Shown here one piece after another: positions 36,357 to 42,467 of a DNA stretch of 64,000 nucleotides. A program made the translations under genes and the position numbers. Numbering within the stretch: position 1 is the stretch's first letter; the number at the start of each line of letters is the position of its first letter. The notes under the pieces are model-generated. The model saw nothing but the letters and a program-made list of their open reading frames with translations. It did not search any database and was not told where the DNA came from. Where the stretch lies: the NCBI RefSeq assembly GCF_028858515.1, contig NZ_JAPJZJ010000002.1:310001-374000 (forward strand), written 5' to 3'. The stretch is from Aurantiacibacter sp. D1-12. Lineage in GTDB: Bacteria; Pseudomonadota; Alphaproteobacteria; Sphingomonadales; Sphingomonadaceae.

Positions 36357-36573
36357 AGTGTGCCTCTGCCCTGTTGTGGCGAGGCGTAACGGTTAAGAGT
36401 TTGGCTGTCTATGCTGAACAAGGCAGGTTTGGGGCTGCACGAAACACGGTGTGCATGGCGCCAACGGCCATACTTTCGTTCAGACATGTAAACGATCTTC
36501 CCGCTTTGTTAACCATCTTGTGCGATGAGCAGAGGGTCGCATCACGCGATACGGGTATAGATGAAGGTGATAA

Positions 36574-38883
36574 GTGGTCGGAACCAAACCGACAGTTAAG
36601 GCGAAAGCCCTGCGTTTCGAACGCCTTAGGCATGCTCTCTGGGCAGGTGCGATCACGCTCGTTTTTGCCTTGATGCAATTTTTTCAGCCTGTCGATCAGA
36701 TGATCTGGGTCACGCAGAATCTGACTTTCAAAGAACCGGCGTCAGGCGAAGTCGCCTATATCTACTCGGAACGCAGCATTGCCGATCCAGACTTTCCGGA
36801 GCGACGCGAAGAACTCGCAAAACTTATCGAAAGCCTCGATCAAGCCGGTGCAAGAGCGATATATATTGATGGGGTCTTCACCGACCCCTCGACTGAAGCG
36901 GCCGACAGCGCTCTCAACACAGCACTTCGTGATTTGAGTGGGAGGGCATTCCTAACATATCGCTTGCGACCAACAGTCACCGGAGAAACCGAAAGCGTTC
37001 GGACTATCGATGTAATCCGTAGCGGAGTACCGGAAGTTGGTGCAGACCCCGGTGCCAATTTCCTCGGCTACATCTGGGAGAGTAGCTACGACATCGAAAC
37101 GCCCGATGGGGAAATGCCCTCGATTGCAGCCCATATCGCAGACACTGATGGGGGTAATGCCGACATATTTCCGGTAAATTACTCCTTCGATCTCGACAGC
37201 ATTCCGTCGATGGAACTTTCACAGGCCAGCAGGCCGAACGTCGATCTCTCCCGCTTCGAGGGCACATCTGTGGTTATCGGCCTTTCACGTGTGGAAGGTT
37301 ATCATATTCCCGGTGTCAGGGACGTGCCACCGGTTCTTGCTCCCGTTTTCGCAGCAGAGTCACTGATGGCTGGTCACACGCGATTTGTGCATGGTGGCCT
37401 GACCGCGTTCGTGCTTGGTCTGCTGGTTATTCTCGCTGGTCGACTGCGGGACAAGAAGATGCGCAGGACAGCATATGCCTTTACCGCGATTACGCTTGTT
37501 GGCTTCGCCGCGACCGCAGGTATCTTGGGTTGGCGCGTCGGCGTTTTCGACGCTGTCGCCTTCTGCGCCATCTTTGCCATCTTCAGACTCCGCTCGGTAT
37601 GGAAAGACTCATTCGCGCTGGTCGATCTGGAAACAAACCTTCCAAGTTTCGCGGCTCTCGAAGCCGATAAAGAGGTGGCCGAAAGCGTGCCCGCCATCAT
37701 TGTCGCCAAGATCCATCGGTTCGAGCAGGTGCGCCGGTCGCTACCGAAGGAACTGCATGCCGAGTACATCATGAGGATCACGGGCCGCCTGAAAGCGGCC
37801 ACGCAAGACGCGACGATCTATCTTGGCCAAGGCCATCTGATTGCCTGGACAATGAAGGAGAAAGACCCGGCCTTGCTGCAAGAGCATCTTGAAGGCTTGC
37901 GCGCATTGTTCTCCGCACCGTTGCTTGTTGCCGATCAACAAGTGGACGTTGGCATTTCATTCGGCGTCGATATTTCACCCAGCCCCAATGTTGCGCGACG
38001 CCTCGCATCTGCTGTGGACGTAGCAGAGAAAACCAATGAGACTTACGATCCGATCATCATCGCCGATACCGCTTCGGATGAGGACCTGATCTGGAACATC
38101 TCGCTCCAGGCCCGCATCGATGCCGCGCTTGAAAATGGCGAAATCTATCTTGCCTACCAACCCAAGGTAATGGTGCAGACCGGCGAGATTATCGGTGTAG
38201 AGGCACTGGTCCGCTGGAAAGACCCTGTGAAAGGTCATATCCCACCAGACAACTTCATCCGCCAGTGCGAGACCGCCGGGCGAATGACACACCTGACCCG
38301 TTTCGTGCTCGAAGAGGCATGCAAGGCCGGCAATGCGTTTGAAGATCGCGGATTGAGCCTACCGATCGCTGTCAATATCTCGGCCACGCTCGTGCACGAG
38401 CGTGGCATCGTACAGATGGTTTCCGAAGTGCTCGACAAGACCGGTTTTGATCCGCGCCGTCTGACGCTGGAGATCACGGAGACCTATCGTATTTCGAATA
38501 TTGACCGGGCGGCAGACATCCTCGGAGAACTCGACAGGCTCGGCCCGAAGATCTCGATGGACGATTTTGGCGTGGGTGCGGCCAGCCTCGAAGCGCTGCT
38601 CCGTCTGCCATTCTCCGAACTCAAGATTGACCGGACCTTTGTCTCGCAAATGACCAGCAATCCAAAGGCAGCTGGCATCGTCCGTTCCATCCTGCAGATG
38701 GGTAAGGACTTGCGAATCATCGTTGTTGCTGAAGGGGTTGAAGACGCCGGAACGTTAACGCTTTTGCGCGATTCGGGGTGCCTTGTTGCCCAGGGATTCG
38801 GTATTTCCCGCCCTGTCGATTTCGAGAGAATCACGCAATTTCAACAAGATGGTGGAAGCGATATCCTAAGGGATATGGTTTAA
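36574..38883 (+). CDS. CHASE2 - degenerate GGDEF - EAL c-di-GMP phosphodiesterase
   Basis: 769 residues, start GTG at 36574 with SD GAAGGTGA. Order: N-terminal helix (about 25-42), periplasmic CHASE2-like sensor (about 50-265, with ARAIYIDGVF and the VVIGLSRVEGYHIPG segment), three helices (about 270-340), a GGDEF-like region lacking the signature (GQGHLIAWTM in its place), and an EAL domain (about 500-755). The EAL catalytic set is complete: VEALVRW, VNISA, LEITE, MDDFGVG, ELKIDRTF, AEGVED. It should hydrolyse c-di-GMP. The 217-base leader has TTAACC near 36510. The peptide cassettes follow. Confidence 0.92.
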   Translation: MVGTKPTVKAKALRFERLRHALWAGAITLVFALMQFFQPVDQMIWVTQNLTFKEPASGEVAYIYSERSIADPDFPERREELAKLIESLDQAGARAIYIDGVFTDPSTEAADSALNTALRDLSGRAFLTYRLRPTVTGETESVRTIDVIRSGVPEVGADPGANFLGYIWESSYDIETPDGEMPSIAAHIADTDGGNADIFPVNYSFDLDSIPSMELSQASRPNVDLSRFEGTSVVIGLSRVEGYHIPGVRDVPPVLAPVFAAESLMAGHTRFVHGGLTAFVLGLLVILAGRLRDKKMRRTAYAFTAITLVGFAATAGILGWRVGVFDAVAFCAIFAIFRLRSVWKDSFALVDLETNLPSFAALEADKEVAESVPAIIVAKIHRFEQVRRSLPKELHAEYIMRITGRLKAATQDATIYLGQGHLIAWTMKEKDPALLQEHLEGLRALFSAPLLVADQQVDVGISFGVDISPSPNVARRLASAVDVAEKTNETYDPIIIADTASDEDLIWNISLQARIDAALENGEIYLAYQPKVMVQTGEIIGVEALVRWKDPVKGHIPPDNFIRQCETAGRMTHLTRFVLEEACKAGNAFEDRGLSLPIAVNISATLVHERGIVQMVSEVLDKTGFDPRRLTLEITETYRISNIDRAADILGELDRLGPKISMDDFGVGAASLEALLRLPFSELKIDRTFVSQMTSNPKAAGIVRSILQMGKDLRIIVVAEGVEDAGTLTLLRDSGCLVAQGFGISRPVDFERITQFQQDGGSDILRDMV

Positions 38884-38917
38884 ACTTTACAAATGAGCTT
38901 GGTTAACGCATTGTGAT
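38884..38917 (+). promoter_or_regulatory. Conserved block upstream of micro-ORF 1
   Basis: ACTTTACAA (38884-38892), nine bases, then GTTAACG (38902-38908). The same two blocks with identical spacing precede micro-ORF 2 at 39079-39103. TTTACA could be a -35; the -10 at 17 bases (CATTGT) is weak. The ACTTTACAA block begins within two bases of the upstream stop codon. Confidence 0.45.
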
Positions 38918-38940
38918 CCTGTTGTAACAGGAGAGTCGCA

Positions 38941-38991
38941 ATGGGTAGAAGCATTTGGGACTGGCTTTTTGGTCGTGGTTCACGCGACTGA
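38941..38991 (+). CDS. Micro-ORF 1, 16-residue Trp-rich peptide
   Basis: Sixteen codons: MGRSIWDWLFGRGSRD. SD AGGAGAG lies 6 bases upstream of the ATG, and a 5-base hairpin (CCTGT 38918-38922 / ACAGG 38927-38931) overlaps the SD. An intrinsic terminator follows at 39012. The peptide shares I-W-D-W-L-F-x-R-G-[ST]-R with micro-ORF 2, while the DNA differs at third positions (CTT TTT / TTA TTC), suggesting the amino acids are conserved. I do not recognise a family. Its Trp content recalls leader peptides, but no trp gene lies downstream; a small membrane-active or regulatory peptide is another option. Confidence 0.55.
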   Translation: MGRSIWDWLFGRGSRD

Positions 38992-39011
38992 AGACATTAG
39001 TCGAATAACGG

Positions 39012-39038
39012 AAAAGGGTGCCTCTGGCGCCCTTTTTT
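39012..39038 (+). terminator. Terminator of micro-ORF 1
   Basis: AAAAGGGTGCC (39012-39022), loop TCT, GGCGCCC then six T (39026-39038); one U-G pair. The stem is almost the same as that of the second cassette. Confidence 0.9.
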
Positions 39039-39078
39039 GTGCCATTTTTGGACAGCGCGATTCCGCAACAGGGTTACC

Positions 39079-39103
39079 ACTTTACAACGAAACGCGATTA
39101 ACG
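39079..39103 (+). promoter_or_regulatory. Conserved block upstream of micro-ORF 2
   Basis: ACTTTACAA (39079-39087), nine bases, ATTAACG (39097-39103): the same pattern and spacing, and the same 40-base distance from the block to the ATG, as for micro-ORF 1. The copies diverge elsewhere, so these blocks look selected. Confidence 0.45.
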
Positions 39104-39112
39104 ATTTCTTGC

Positions 39113-39131
39113 CTCTCCACAAAATGGAGAG
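39113..39131 (+). promoter_or_regulatory. Hairpin sequestering the SD of micro-ORF 2
   Basis: CTCTCCA (39113-39119), loop CAAAA, TGGAGAG (39125-39131). The 3' arm is the Shine-Dalgarno for the ATG at 39136, so folding would hide it from the ribosome; this could be a translational switch. Confidence 0.6.
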
Positions 39132-39135
39132 AACA

Positions 39136-39177
39136 ATGCGTATCTGGGACTGGTTATTCCATCGCGGCACTCGTTGA
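39136..39177 (+). CDS. Micro-ORF 2, 13-residue Trp-rich peptide
   Basis: Thirteen codons: MRIWDWLFHRGTR. SD GGAGAG is 4 bases upstream of the ATG but lies inside a 7-base hairpin. A terminator follows at 39204. The peptide is a second version of micro-ORF 1 with the same Ile-Trp-Asp-Trp-Leu-Phe core and R-G-[ST]-R end. It is followed only by the convergent yihA operon, so it is not a leader for a downstream gene. Function unknown. Confidence 0.55.
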   Translation: MRIWDWLFHRGTR

Positions 39178-39203
39178 GTGCCGGGGCTGAAAACCACAAA
39201 AAC

Positions 39204-39230
39204 AAAAGGGTGCCGAAAGCACCCTTTTTT
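39204..39230. terminator. Terminator of micro-ORF 2, probably bidirectional
   Basis: AAAAGGGTGC (39204-39213), loop CGAAA, GCACCC and six T. On the minus strand the tract TTTTGTTTTT after the stem would also stop the yihA operon, whose last stop is at 39253. Confidence 0.9.
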
Positions 39231-39252: not shown

Positions 39253-39894
39253 TCAGATTCGCACATCGCGCAGCAAAGCTGCGCGTAGTTCGTCCAGCCC
39301 CATGCCCTTCTCGGAACTGGTCACGTGAATATGCGGGAAAGCGGCGGCGTGCTTGCGCGCTTCCTCGGCAACCTTGGCTGTAACCCGCTCAAGCTCACTT
39401 GCCTTGATCTTGTCCGCTTTGGTCAGCACGACGCGGTAGCCCACAGCCGCCTCGTCCAGCATTTGCATCATGTCGCGGTCTGAATCTTTCAGGCCGTGGC
39501 GGCTGTCGACCAGAACCATAGTGCGCTTCAGCGGCACCCGCCCGCGCAGGAAGGTCTTCACCAGATTGCGCCACTTCTCGACAACCTTAACGGGCGCCTT
39601 GGCGAAACCATAACCTGGCATGTCCACCAGCCGGAACTGGGTCGGCTCCCCCACCTCAAAGAAGTTCAATTCCTGCGTGCGACCCGGCGTCACCGATGTG
39701 CGAGCAATCGCCTTGCGGCCGGTAAGCGCGTTGATGAGAGAGCTTTTGCCGACGTTGGACCGCCCACAAAAAGCGACCTCCGGAAAATCCGGATCGGGAA
39801 TGAATTTGAGCTGCGGTGCAGACAGCAGAAAGTCCACGCGGCCTGAGAACAGGCGGCGCGCTTCTTCTGCCAGCGCCTTGTCTTCATCGGTCAT
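39253..39894 (-). CDS. yihA: Ribosome-biogenesis GTPase YihA/EngB
   Basis: 213 residues. An essential GTPase for 50S assembly. G1 is FCGRSNVGKSSLINAL, G2 TSVTPGRTQELNFF, G3 LVDMPGYGFA, G4 VLTKADKI and the G5-like VTSSEKGMG; KAPVKVVEKW after G3 is typical of EngB. Last gene of the rpmH-rnpA-yidD-yidC-yihA cluster on the minus strand, 31 bases after yidC. Confidence 0.96.
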   Translation of the reverse strand: MTDEDKALAEEARRLFSGRVDFLLSAPQLKFIPDPDFPEVAFCGRSNVGKSSLINALTGRKAIARTSVTPGRTQELNFFEVGEPTQFRLVDMPGYGFAKAPVKVVEKWRNLVKTFLRGRVPLKRTMVLVDSRHGLKDSDRDMMQMLDEAAVGYRVVLTKADKIKASELERVTAKVAEEARKHAAAFPHIHVTSSEKGMGLDELRAALLRDVRI

Positions 39895-39925
39895 CGCACA
39901 TGTCCTTCAGGCGTCAGGCCAGGCC

Positions 39926-41680
39926 TCAAGCCTTCTCGGCCTTCTCCCGTTCCGCCGCGCGTGCCTTTTCTTCCTTGTCCTTCAGCATGGCAGCCTTGAG
40001 CTGCGGATTGCGCGAGTAGAGGAATTTCTGCTGCGCGAGCGTCAGCACGTTATTGGCGATCCAGTAGATCAGCAGGCCGGCGGCGAATGGTGCCATAACG
40101 AACATCAGCACCCACGGCATGATCATGAATATCTGCTGCTGCATCGGATCCATCGCGGCCGGGTTCAGCTTGAACTGCAGCCACATGGTGAAGCCGAGCA
40201 GTACCGCCAGCACGCCGATGGCAAGGAAGCCGGGAGGCGTGAAGTCGAGCAAGCCGAACAGGTTCAGGATCGTCGCCGGATCGGGCGCAGACAGATCCTT
40301 GATCCAGCCAAAGAACGGCTCGTGCCGCATTTCGATGGCCAGCATCAGCACCTTGTACAGCGCGAAGAAGATCGGGATCTGGATAAAGATCGGCAGACAG
40401 CCAGCCAGCGGATTGACCTTCTCTTCCTTATAGAGCTTGGCCATCTGTTGCTGCAGTTCCTGCTTGTCGTCCTTGTAGCGTTCCTGCAGCGCCTTCATCT
40501 TCGGCTGCACCGCGCGCATCTGCGCCATGCTGGTGAACTGCTTCTGCGCCACCGGGAACAGGATCAGGCGGATCGCCAAGGTTAGACAGATGATCGCGAG
40601 GCCGAAATTGCCGACCAGGCCGAACAGGAAGATCAGCACCTGCCACATCGGCCAGGCGATCCAGCGGAACCAGCCCCAATCGATAGCCAGGTTGAAACGC
40701 TCGACACCTTGCGCTTCGTATTGCGAGAGAACCGCGCTTTCCTTGGCACCTGCGAACAGGCGCGTGGTACGCGTGACACTCTGGCCCGCACCGACATTCA
40801 CCGGCTCGTAAATCAGGTCCGCACGATAGGTCCCATTCCCGGCAGAACGGAAGGTACCGGCCGCGCTCTGGCCTTCTTCGGTGATGAGCGCTGACATCCA
40901 GTAGATGTCGGTAAAGCCGATCCAGTCGGTCGCGCCGCCCATCTCGACGGGCCCCTCTTCCAGAACATCCTCATAGTCCCAGTCGAAATTCACGCCGTCA
41001 GCGTTGGCAGCAATGGGACCGGCATGGACGGTAAAGGTGCTCGGGCTCGCATTCGCGCTGTCGCGGTTGACGAAAGCATAGGGGCGCAGCGCCACCGATC
41101 CCTCGCCACTATTGGTAACGCCTTGCGTGACGGTGAGCATATAGTGCTCGTCAATCTCGTACCGCAACGTGAACTGTTGCCCATTACCATTGTCCCAGCC
41201 AAGCGTGACCGGCGTTTCCTGCGTCAGCTGATCACCATCGGCGAGGGTCCACACGGTATCGGCATCAGGCACTGATACGCCCTCGCCCACCCAGCCGAAC
41301 TGCGCGAAATGCTGCGCATCGGTTCCAGCCGGGGAGAACATTCGGACATTGTCGCTGTCTTCATCCACCGTTTCACGGTGAGTCTTCAGGTCGATATCGT
41401 CGACGCGTGCACCAACCGGGTTGATCGATCCGTGGATTTCCGGTGCGTCGATGACAATCCGATCTGTGCTCGCCAGCGCGATGTCGATGTCGATGACTTC
41501 GGCGGGGGCATCTCCGGCAACAGCGGGAGCAGCCACATTGGCGGCAGGTGTGTCCGCACTGCTGGCGACTTCGCTCGGCGCGTCCGTTTCCGGATAGAAA
41601 GTGCGCATAGTAAAGTCCCAGCCAAAAAGCAGGACCGCGCTCAGCACTACGGCGAGAATCAGATTACGCTGGTTGTCCAA
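39926..41680 (-). CDS. yidC: Membrane protein insertase YidC
   Basis: 584 residues. N-terminal helix (NLILAVVLSAVLLFGWDF), a large periplasmic domain (about 60-345), then the 60 kDa/Oxa1 core with five helices (about 360-565: WPMWQVLIFLFGLVGNFGLAII..., the charged hairpin QPKMKALQERYKDDKQELQQ, and NPLAGCLPIFIQIPIFFALYKVL). The C-terminal tail is rich in Lys and Glu. It inserts inner-membrane proteins with or without Sec. yidD lies six bases upstream, in the expected order. Confidence 0.97.
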   Translation of the reverse strand: MDNQRNLILAVVLSAVLLFGWDFTMRTFYPETDAPSEVASSADTPAANVAAPAVAGDAPAEVIDIDIALASTDRIVIDAPEIHGSINPVGARVDDIDLKTHRETVDEDSDNVRMFSPAGTDAQHFAQFGWVGEGVSVPDADTVWTLADGDQLTQETPVTLGWDNGNGQQFTLRYEIDEHYMLTVTQGVTNSGEGSVALRPYAFVNRDSANASPSTFTVHAGPIAANADGVNFDWDYEDVLEEGPVEMGGATDWIGFTDIYWMSALITEEGQSAAGTFRSAGNGTYRADLIYEPVNVGAGQSVTRTTRLFAGAKESAVLSQYEAQGVERFNLAIDWGWFRWIAWPMWQVLIFLFGLVGNFGLAIICLTLAIRLILFPVAQKQFTSMAQMRAVQPKMKALQERYKDDKQELQQQMAKLYKEEKVNPLAGCLPIFIQIPIFFALYKVLMLAIEMRHEPFFGWIKDLSAPDPATILNLFGLLDFTPPGFLAIGVLAVLLGFTMWLQFKLNPAAMDPMQQQIFMIMPWVLMFVMAPFAAGLLIYWIANNVLTLAQQKFLYSRNPQLKAAMLKDKEEKARAAEREKAEKA

Positions 41681-41686
41681 GATGAA

Positions 41687-41944
41687 TTATCCGTCGCGAC
41701 TATCAGTTTCAGGGAGCGTGGCGGCGCTGCGGGCCGGCGGAACCGGATCGTGGCCATGTCCCCCCCAAGGGTTGCAGCGCAATAACCGCTTCGTGGCCAT
41801 CCATCCACCCCTGATTGTGCCATGCGTTTCGAGAGCCTCGATCGCATAGGCGCTACAGCTCGGCTGGTATCGGCACGTGGGGGGCAAAATACGACTGGGG
41901 CCCAGTTGCCAGGCCCGTGCGATCAGGATGAGAACTCGCTTCAT
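41687..41944 (-). CDS. yidD: Membrane protein insertion efficiency factor YidD
   Basis: 85 residues. The family core is RYQPSCSAYAIEALETHGTI with its conserved cysteines, preceded by the amphipathic helix LIARAWQLGPSRILPPTC and followed by RLLRCNPWGGHGHDPVP. It assists YidC. Its start overlaps rnpA by four bases and its end is six bases from yidC. Confidence 0.95.
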   Translation of the reverse strand: MKRVLILIARAWQLGPSRILPPTCRYQPSCSAYAIEALETHGTIRGGWMATKRLLRCNPWGGHGHDPVPPARSAATLPETDSRDG

Positions 41945-42312
41945 TTGCGGTTGCCCCTGCGCGGACGGCGGGGCTTGTCACCCTTGCCTTCGCGCGCACG
42001 CTCGAGAGCAATGGCTAGCTCTTCCCGAAGCTGGCCGAAATCGCGCTCGATCCCGCCTTCGCGGCCGATCAACACATGATCGTGATCGGGCAAGCCATAA
42101 TCGGGTAATGCTTCGCGCAGCAGGTCGCGAAAACGCCGCTTCATGCGGTTGCGCACCACGGCGTTGCCGATCTTCTTGGTCACGGTGATGCCATAACGCG
42201 TACCCTCACCACCGTTCGGACGCGCAAGCAGAACGAAGCCCGGGCGCGCAACACGCAACCCGCGATTCGCCGCGAGAAAGTCCGCGCGTTTGGTGAGGAC
42301 CTTGGGGGTCAT
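41941..42312 (-). CDS. rnpA: Ribonuclease P protein component
   Basis: 123 residues from MTPKVLTKRADFLAANRG (ATG 42312). The protein subunit of RNase P, which matures tRNA 5' ends. The RNR motif region KKIGNAVVRNRMKRRFRDLLRE is clear; the C-terminus is very basic (KPRRPRRGNRK). The frame is open upstream, but the conserved start is at 42312. It is separated from rpmH by a 264-base region with several hairpins. Confidence 0.95.
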   Translation of the reverse strand: MTPKVLTKRADFLAANRGLRVARPGFVLLARPNGGEGTRYGITVTKKIGNAVVRNRMKRRFRDLLREALPDYGLPDHDHVLIGREGGIERDFGQLREELAIALERAREGKGDKPRRPRRGNRK

Positions 42313-42343
42313 GGGTGTTATGTAGGTGGTGATGTTTGTTTTG

Positions 42344-42365
42344 CGAACCCGCCTCCGCGGGTTCG
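42344..42365. repeat. Perfect GC hairpin upstream of rnpA
   Basis: CGAACCCGC (42344-42352), loop CTCC, GCGGGTTCG (42357-42365). It lies 32-53 bases upstream of the rnpA start on the minus strand. Further stems are at 42392-42406, 42503-42515, 42513-42529 and 42535-42552. Confidence 0.7.
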
Positions 42366-42467
42366 TCCTCGCTAGATGCGCAGGCAAGCTGCGCCCGCTG
42401 CGGGCGAGCAGTCGCCCTTGCCCTCGGCTAGTCGCCGAGCGAGCTCCGCGACAGGATTTCTAGCTGG

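What the first reader, a model, noticed from the sequence alone, without database searches (positions are those of the whole stretch)
38884..39230. Duplicated micro-peptide cassettes with a conserved IWDWLFxRGxR core
Seen: two head-to-tail units, each made of ACTTTACAA, nine bases, [GA]TTAACG, a hairpin over the Shine-Dalgarno, an ATG exactly 40 bases from the start of the TTAACG block context, an ORF of 16 or 13 codons (MGRSIWDWLFGRGSRD, MRIWDWLFHRGTR), and an AAAAGGGTGC...CCC-T6 terminator. Codons differ at third positions while the amino acids are kept, which argues for selected peptides rather than chance. Each unit is self-contained. Gene finders would skip both. Possible roles: small membrane-active peptides, a type I toxin-like module, signalling peptides, or dual-function sRNAs. 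They follow directly on a c-di-GMP phosphodiesterase gene.
Basis: seen in the sequence. Interest (0 to 1): 0.82.

Follow-up and report, generated by a model that had tools for sequence, protein, structure and literature searches.

The report
Tiny protein paired with c-di-GMP phosphodiesterase
Two tiny genes, each coding for a peptide of only 13 or 16 amino acids, belong to a conserved, apparently unnamed family that sits right behind one particular signalling-enzyme gene in sphingomonad bacteria, which suggests a very small partner or regulator of that enzyme.

Summary
Both cassettes exist as described, and homologues occur across Sphingomonadaceae. A model hit 81 of 397 family genomes; of 71 examined, 59 lie directly behind a CHASE2-EAL c-di-GMP phosphodiesterase (PDE) gene and 12 are tatA. 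80 distinct cassettes share a promoter-like block, a hairpin over the Shine-Dalgarno (75 of 80 more stable than 90% of shuffles), a core [IF]-W-x-W-[LI]-F with a coding signature, and a terminator (78 of 80). Among 30 EAL proteins picked without regard to the cassette, the 15 in the PDE clade have a short companion ORF (14 by a uniform rule, 1 by eye, longer forms such as GFWDWLLGGGW); the 15 outside have none of this kind. Eight longer forms match no Pfam or NCBIfam model, and two motif searches of the paper library found no relevant paper. Best reading: a translation-gated micro-mRNA, probably CtrA-controlled, encoding a dedicated small partner of this PDE. The gene family is well supported; the partner role is inferred. 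Side-by-side duplication was seen only in this genome. Toxin, attenuator and TatA readings are not supported.

The parts
36574..38883 (+). CHASE2 - degenerate GGDEF - EAL c-di-GMP phosphodiesterase gene (start codon uncertain); the constant upstream neighbour of the family
   Evidence: Pfam EAL 2e-61 and CHASE2 3.2e-7; catalytic EAL motifs present in the alignment to 5m3c; clade of carriers
38877..38914 (+). Unit 1 promoter-like block: GGTTTA, TTTACA (-35-like, 38886-38891), GGTTAACG, CATTGT (-10-like, 38909-38914)
   Evidence: sequence; logo over 73 of the 80 cassettes; unique in own genome. Promoter role inferred
38909..38943 (+). Unit 1 hairpin covering the Shine-Dalgarno (AGGAGA 38929-38934)
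   Evidence: MFE -15.2 kcal/mol against shuffle mean -6.4
38941..38991 (+). Micro-ORF 1, MGRSIWDWLFGRGSRD (16 codons + stop)
   Evidence: core conserved in 80 cassettes
39012..39038 (+). Unit 1 intrinsic terminator
39072..39109 (+). Unit 2 promoter-like block: GGTTA, TTTACA (39081-39086), GATTAACG, ATTTCT (39104-39109)
   Evidence: kept although it is not behind a PDE stop codon
39113..39131 (+). Unit 2 hairpin covering the Shine-Dalgarno, stem sequence different from unit 1
   Evidence: MFE -10.3 against shuffle mean -4.2, SD fully paired
39136..39177 (+). Micro-ORF 2, MRIWDWLFHRGTR (13 codons + stop)
39204..39230 (+). Unit 2 intrinsic terminator
39253..39894 (-). Convergent GTPase gene (EngB/YihA-like by reading); beside the cassette only in the window's genus, so not a fixed partner
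   Evidence: Pfam MMR_HSR1; found in 11 of 12 own-genus loci and 0 of 46 other PDE-linked loci within 1.5 kb

Best explanation
Each unit is a stand-alone micro-gene: its own promoter-like block, a short leader folded into a hairpin that hides the Shine-Dalgarno, an ORF of 10-18 codons in most cases (14-41 in other branches) with the core [IF]-W-[D/E]-W-[LI]-[FL], and an intrinsic terminator. Shown: anatomy, conservation, coding signature, and association with one clade of CHASE2-EAL c-di-GMP phosphodiesterases. Inferred: the block is a promoter controlled by CtrA (half-site TTAACCAT, reverse complement ATGGTTAA); the hairpin keeps translation low or conditional; the peptide acts in trans as a small partner of the neighbouring membrane PDE, tuning its activity, location or stability. 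The CtrA/c-di-GMP circuit would then contain a conditionally made mini-subunit. In this genome the unit has been duplicated in tandem.
For: Linkage: 58 of 70 fetched R1 hits have the PDE directly upstream, and the 12 without are tatA-like, 6 of them tested by Pfam; L010 is a further true case. PDE stop to TTTAC is 2-7 nt in the 14 of 17 genes that could be measured (window value recounted). The downstream gene changes. Of 30 EAL proteins taken without regard to the cassette, 15 fall in the clade of carriers (SH-aLRT 100); 14 of these 15 have an SD-led aromatic short ORF of the family by one rule and L162 has one by eye, against 0 of 15 outside. CtrA half-site 7-mers lie in 10 of the 15 clade leaders and 0 of the 15 others; 10 copies against 0.17 expected in 14 leaders. 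Peptide: second Trp in 79 and first in 77 of 80; in 48 [IF]WDW[LI][FL] forms mean differences at codon positions 1/2/3 are 1.11/0/2.03. Hairpin: 75 of 80, SD core paired in 74 of 80 with flanking pairs of all types, 12 of 14 longer forms. CtrA gene in the genome; half-site definition in a passage of PMC3692519.
Against: No transcript, ribosome or protein data. Contact with the PDE rests on genetic linkage alone; shared regulation or an RNA role would give linkage too. The ATGGTTWA repeats are 24 nt apart, not the TTAA-N7-TTAA full site. The tandem spacing is not enriched in the genome (3 hits, one of them the cassette, against 2 in the reversed controls; 0 hits for tandem TTAACCAT). 5 of 15 divergent leaders lack a half-site 7-mer. 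The -10-like hexamer is weak. In 3 of 47 carrier rows (L064, L162, L171) the W-x-W core is degraded; scoring L064 and L162 as non-carriers would add losses to the tree. 32 of the 47 carrier rows were found through the cassette, so only the other 15 test the association.
Confidence: 0.5

Rival explanations
1. The peptide is real and co-regulated with the PDE but acts elsewhere in the c-di-GMP/CtrA programme (for example on another membrane or polar protein); adjacency reflects a shared regulon.
For: CtrA-type half-sites lie in the cassette, and TTTGTTAACCAT lies upstream of the PDE in the window and exactly in 4 of 10 other loci whose upstream DNA was held. The unit has its own block and terminator.
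Against: Carriers keep it at exactly this place while the next gene changes; a regulon member could sit anywhere.
Confidence: 0.25
2. Dual-function or structural RNA: the RNA (SD hairpin plus terminator hairpin), possibly a 3'-end-derived sRNA of the PDE gene, is the main agent and the ORF is secondary.
For: Short terminator-bounded unit with a strongly conserved 5' hairpin.
Against: Stems change sequence while staying paired, which fits internal pairing more than a fixed target-pairing seed. The codon pattern shows selection on amino acids. ORF length and N-terminus change but the core stays. No Rfam family reached its gathering score.
Confidence: 0.15
3. Leader peptide or attenuator: ribosome pausing at the Trp codons controls the terminator and a downstream gene.
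For: Two Trp codons in a tiny ORF followed by a terminator.
Against: The next gene is convergent here and is not the same across genera. Longer forms have up to 41 codons.
Confidence: 0.03
4. Type I toxin-like membrane-active peptide.
For: Small peptide behind a sequestered SD and before a terminator, as in several type I toxin mRNAs (recalled).
Against: By reading, the 10-17 aa forms have mostly an acidic residue inside the core and no long hydrophobic stretch; they sit at a fixed site behind a PDE. No antisense gene was looked for.
Confidence: 0.04

Closest known systems
Spot 42 / SpfP (15-aa protein in a dual-function sRNA; one passage seen in PMC12119635)
   Same: Peptide of the same size class in a short RNA
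   Different: Spot 42 also acts by base pairing; here the conserved parts are the peptide core and a self-folding SD hairpin, and the gene is tied to a PDE clade in Sphingomonadaceae
VcdRP/VcdP dual-function RNA of Vibrio cholerae (29 aa; abstract start seen in a search listing only, PMC8672173)
   Same: Small protein from a short RNA
   Different: Different host; sequence not compared; no PDE link mentioned in the part seen
Trans-acting leader peptide peTrpL of Sinorhizobium (recalled, not looked up)
   Same: Alphaproteobacterial, very short, Trp-rich
   Different: No trp operon or fixed downstream gene here; terminator-bounded unit of its own
TatA N-terminus (MGxxSIWHWL...), PF02416
   Same: MG-x-SIW-x-WL string; brought in as false hits of the model
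   Different: 71-85 aa, no PDE neighbour within 1.5 kb

Membership tests
Dual-function sRNA | Short transcript with own promoter and terminator | tested here: inconclusive
   Block and terminator conserved in sequence; no transcript data
Dual-function sRNA | Conserved base-pairing seed for other mRNAs | tested here: inconclusive
   Stem sequences vary with compensation; no target search was run
Dual-function sRNA | Small ORF under protein-level selection | tested here: met
   Codon positions and W-x-W conservation
Type I toxin-antitoxin | Hydrophobic membrane-spanning toxin peptide | tested here: not met
   By reading the 80 peptides: 75 are 10-18 aa with a W-x-W core; no hydropathy program was run
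Type I toxin-antitoxin | Antisense RNA antitoxin | not tested
   No antisense analysis was made
Leader peptide / attenuator | Conserved co-directional regulated gene downstream | tested here: not met
   Convergent GTPase here, kept in 11 of 12 own-genus loci and 0 of 46 others
TatA | PF02416 match | tested here: not met
   8 longer forms gave no Pfam match up to E 1 (forms under 20 aa cannot be scanned); 6 of 6 tatA false hits tested do match
CtrA regulon | CtrA half-site TTAACCAT at the promoter | tested here: met
   ATGGTTAA in the 73-cassette logo; half-site 7-mer in 10 of 15 clade leaders against 0 of 15 outside
CtrA regulon | Full site TTAA-N7-TTAA | tested here: not met
   Repeats lie 24 nt apart
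CtrA regulon | CtrA binding or CtrA-dependent transcription | not testable with these tools
   Needs ChIP or EMSA

The most novel reading that the evidence does not exclude
A clade-locked micro-protein (down to 10 aa, W-x-W core) is a dedicated subunit or modulator of one c-di-GMP phosphodiesterase subfamily, made from its own CtrA-controlled micro-mRNA whose start site is gated by an RNA hairpin. It would be an undescribed layer of c-di-GMP control and among the smallest conserved protein regulators known to me.
Probability: 0.4. Interest if true: 0.85.

Novelty: new variant of a known kind. Interest (0 to 1): 0.72.

Why it matters
Proteins of 10-17 residues are below the usual reach of gene finders, and few are known (to my recollection) to be conserved across a bacterial family. 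This one has a neighbour of known chemistry, a c-di-GMP phosphodiesterase, and a strict association with it, so its role can be tested directly. If it modulates the enzyme, it adds micro-proteins to the control of c-di-GMP, a central switch between motile and sessile life and part of the CtrA cell-cycle circuit in Alphaproteobacteria.

Tried and rejected
One search looked for files under wrong names and was repeated. The pattern was off by one base; one search is the corrected one. The 12 fetched R1 hits without the PDE are tatA-like, not unlinked copies. L009 is an IWDWLF inside a longer frame. Attenuation of a fixed downstream gene was rejected because the neighbour changes. A set of promoters with the same tandem half-sites was not found in the genome. 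Rfam gave only two sub-threshold matches. A PDE search of 289 class-level genomes gave 3 with a match at E <= 1e-60, all in the same family. An R2 search of 246 order-level genomes gave 40 with a match, all in the same family; the weak ones there were not examined.

Rows dropped before counts: 10 of the 81 R1 hit genomes (E 0.002-0.01) were never fetched. L064 was left out of the 80 cassettes (no recognisable core). 15 of the 36 named sphingomonad records were left out because they repeat sequences already held. The logo used 73 and model R2 70 of the 80. L162 dropped out of the leader test, so n = 14 there. In one search unit 1 was read as unit 2 and L028 lost its first codon; both were corrected before any count. 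The distance printed for the window is one too low because I passed a position by hand; 2 nt is right. In one search, 32 of the 58 PDE-linked R1 loci were chosen by hand for spread; L162, L165 and L171 were called carriers by eye because the pattern missed them. One search repeats the labelling of the 30 unselected EAL loci with one looser rule: it finds L165 and L171, still misses L162, and lists two unrelated short ORFs outside the clade (L172, L185). The 80 cassettes are related, so counts over them are not independent trials. Shuffles are mononucleotide shuffles of the 5' arm only.

Full report
CHECK. Both cassettes exist as described. The core pattern occurs only twice in the 2.57-Mb genome, both times here, and so does TTTACNAN9RTTAA. 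Between the copies three of six core codons differ, all synonymously, and the two SD hairpins use different stems.

HOMOLOGUES. An exact codon-degenerate IWDWLF pattern found 9 of 397 genomes of the family. Eight cassettes (two of the window, six of relatives) gave a sequence model, R1. It hit 81 of 397 genomes, including 12 of 12 of the window's genus. I fetched 70 of these: 58 have the CHASE2-EAL gene directly upstream. The other 12 carry a TatA-like frame, and the 6 that were tested match PF02416. L010 is a further true case. Ten weak hits were not fetched. A scan of named genomes gave 66 records. In 36 of them, 35 titled as sphingomonads (Aurantiacibacter, Alteraurantiacibacter, Qipengyuania, Erythrobacter, Altererythrobacter, Allopontixanthobacter, Pelagerythrobacter, Citromicrobium or unclassified) and one as an alphaproteobacterium, the match is a short ATG-started ORF. 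Of these, 32 carry the exact upstream block and four are cut off or variant. Of the 30 other records none has the block and 14 have an in-frame ATG.

ANATOMY. In 73 of the 80 cassettes, chosen by the presence of TTTA at its start, the logo reads ATGGTTWA-n3-C-TTTACA-AAC-n4-ATGGTTAAC-G-n-A. TTTACA, 17 nt and a weak -10-like hexamer with A in 88% would make a promoter; this is inference. The block starts 2-3 nt after the PDE stop in 13 and 7 nt in one of 14 measured genes; three more could not be measured. Unit 2 of the window, which is not behind the PDE stop, keeps its own block, so the unit is self-contained. The leader folds the SD into a hairpin: mean minimum free energy -11.7 against -5.3 kcal/mol for shuffles of the 5' arm, with 75 of 80 in the lowest 10%. 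In 74 of 80 at least three of the four SD core bases are paired, and flanking pairs occur as C-G, U-A, A-U and G-C. A terminator follows in 78 of 80, against 6% of shuffles.

PEPTIDE. Lengths are 10-18 aa in 75 of 80; the other five are 20, 25, 31, 38 and 41 aa. The first aromatic is W in 77 and Y in 3, the second W in 79 and Y in 1. The middle residue is D in 58 and E in 11 of 80. In 48 forms [IF]WDW[LI][FL] codon position 2 never differs and position 3 differs most.

WIDER FAMILY. The PDE was sought in 60 family genomes taken from genera without an R1 hit or as non-hit members of their genus; 57 had some EAL hit at E <= 1e-40. Thirty of these EAL loci were read. In 15 a short ORF of 14-34 aa of the same kind follows the PDE, e.g. 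MAKRTKQPVRGFWDWLLGGGWSN and MKTTKTVRPAPTKGFWDWVMGGGWKNG (12 by pattern and three by eye). A single looser rule finds 14 of the 15 (not L162) and none of this kind in the other 15. Of 14 leaders tested, 12 fold more stably than 90% of shuffles, and together they hold 10 CtrA half-site 7-mers against 0.17 expected. Within 200 nt of the PDE stop, 10 of the 15 carriers and 0 of the 15 non-carriers have such a 7-mer. None of the 8 longer peptides tested matched Pfam or NCBIfam at E <= 1.

TREE. 62 EAL proteins were used: 32 of the 58 R1-found carriers, the 15 new carriers, and 15 without. The 47 carriers form one side of a branch with SH-aLRT 100; the label needs one change as I set it. The 32 were found through the cassette, so the test of association is the 15 against 15. 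Three of the 47 (L064, L162, L171) have a degraded core. In the class-level sample of 289 genomes the three genomes with a PDE match at E <= 1e-60 belong to the same family.

THE ENZYME. Pfam gives EAL (2e-61) and CHASE2. Catalytic motifs (EALVRW, LEITET, DDFG, LKID, AEGVE) align with a solved EAL protein, 5m3c, and the GGDEF site is degenerate (LGQGH). An active phosphodiesterase is likely.

REGULATION. ATGGTTAA is the reverse complement of the CtrA half-site TTAACCAT (passage in PMC3692519; passages on promoter architecture in PMC6180460 and PMC11264516). The genome has CtrA (NF045991, 424.9 bits against a cut-off of 350). TTTGTTAACCAT lies upstream of the PDE in the window (36505-36516) and in L089, L105, L107 and L120; L094 has a one-base variant, and five other loci whose upstream DNA was held do not show it. 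Against CtrA: the spacing is not that of the full site, and no other promoter with the tandem arrangement stood out in the genome.

MECHANISM. Shown: a conserved gene unit, a coding signature, an SD hairpin, and clade-wide linkage to one PDE. Inferred: CtrA control, translational gating, action on the PDE. I favour a PDE partner because the linkage survives changes of the other neighbour and one clade holds the carriers. Co-regulation without contact and an RNA role remain open.

NOVELTY. Full-text searches for 'wdwlf' (one unrelated nursing paper) and 'fwdwl' (none) gave nothing relevant. Listings for CHASE2/EAL/Sphingomonadales, small proteins in Alphaproteobacteria, Erythrobacter with small RNA and CtrA (none), CtrA with Sphingomonas and c-di-GMP with sORF (none) showed no description of this family; I saw passages of PMC9756655 only. 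Most subscription papers are not held. I file it as a new variant of a known kind (small proteins and dual-function RNAs), of unusual size and with an unusually strict partner.

Noticed in passing
L067-L070, L072-L075, L077, L079, L081, L082: Sphingomonad TatA N-termini (MGxxSIWHWL...FGKGRF) resemble the micro-peptide with the helix cut out; perhaps convergence of interfacial aromatic residues, but unexplained.
   Followed up: partly
window 36505-36516; L089, L105, L107, L120 (variant in L094): TTTGTTAACCAT (CtrA half-site) upstream of the PDE gene, suggesting that PDE and micro-gene share a regulator; absent from L102, L121, L122, L143 and L146.
   Followed up: partly
L064 and L162: Short ORF at the right place but the W-x-W core is lost (by eye: a GTG-started VIDLIAIALGSRRGS frame; MWIIEALFGTGRRR): natural cases for asking whether the PDE changed too.
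   Followed up: no
L066, L071, L078: Related genomes carry forms of 31-41 aa with a basic N-terminal arm (MSNRK...) before the same core.
   Followed up: partly
G141:C38:4-47; L083 and L125 (one MAG): A second, partial cassette match at a contig end in G141, and two contigs of one MAG with the same peptide: duplication or assembly artefact.
   Followed up: no
window 39253-42387, minus strand: GTPase (engB-like), yidC-like, yidD-like and rnpA-like ORFs follow (names from reading; only the first was checked by Pfam): an arrangement often seen near replication origins (recalled).
   Followed up: no
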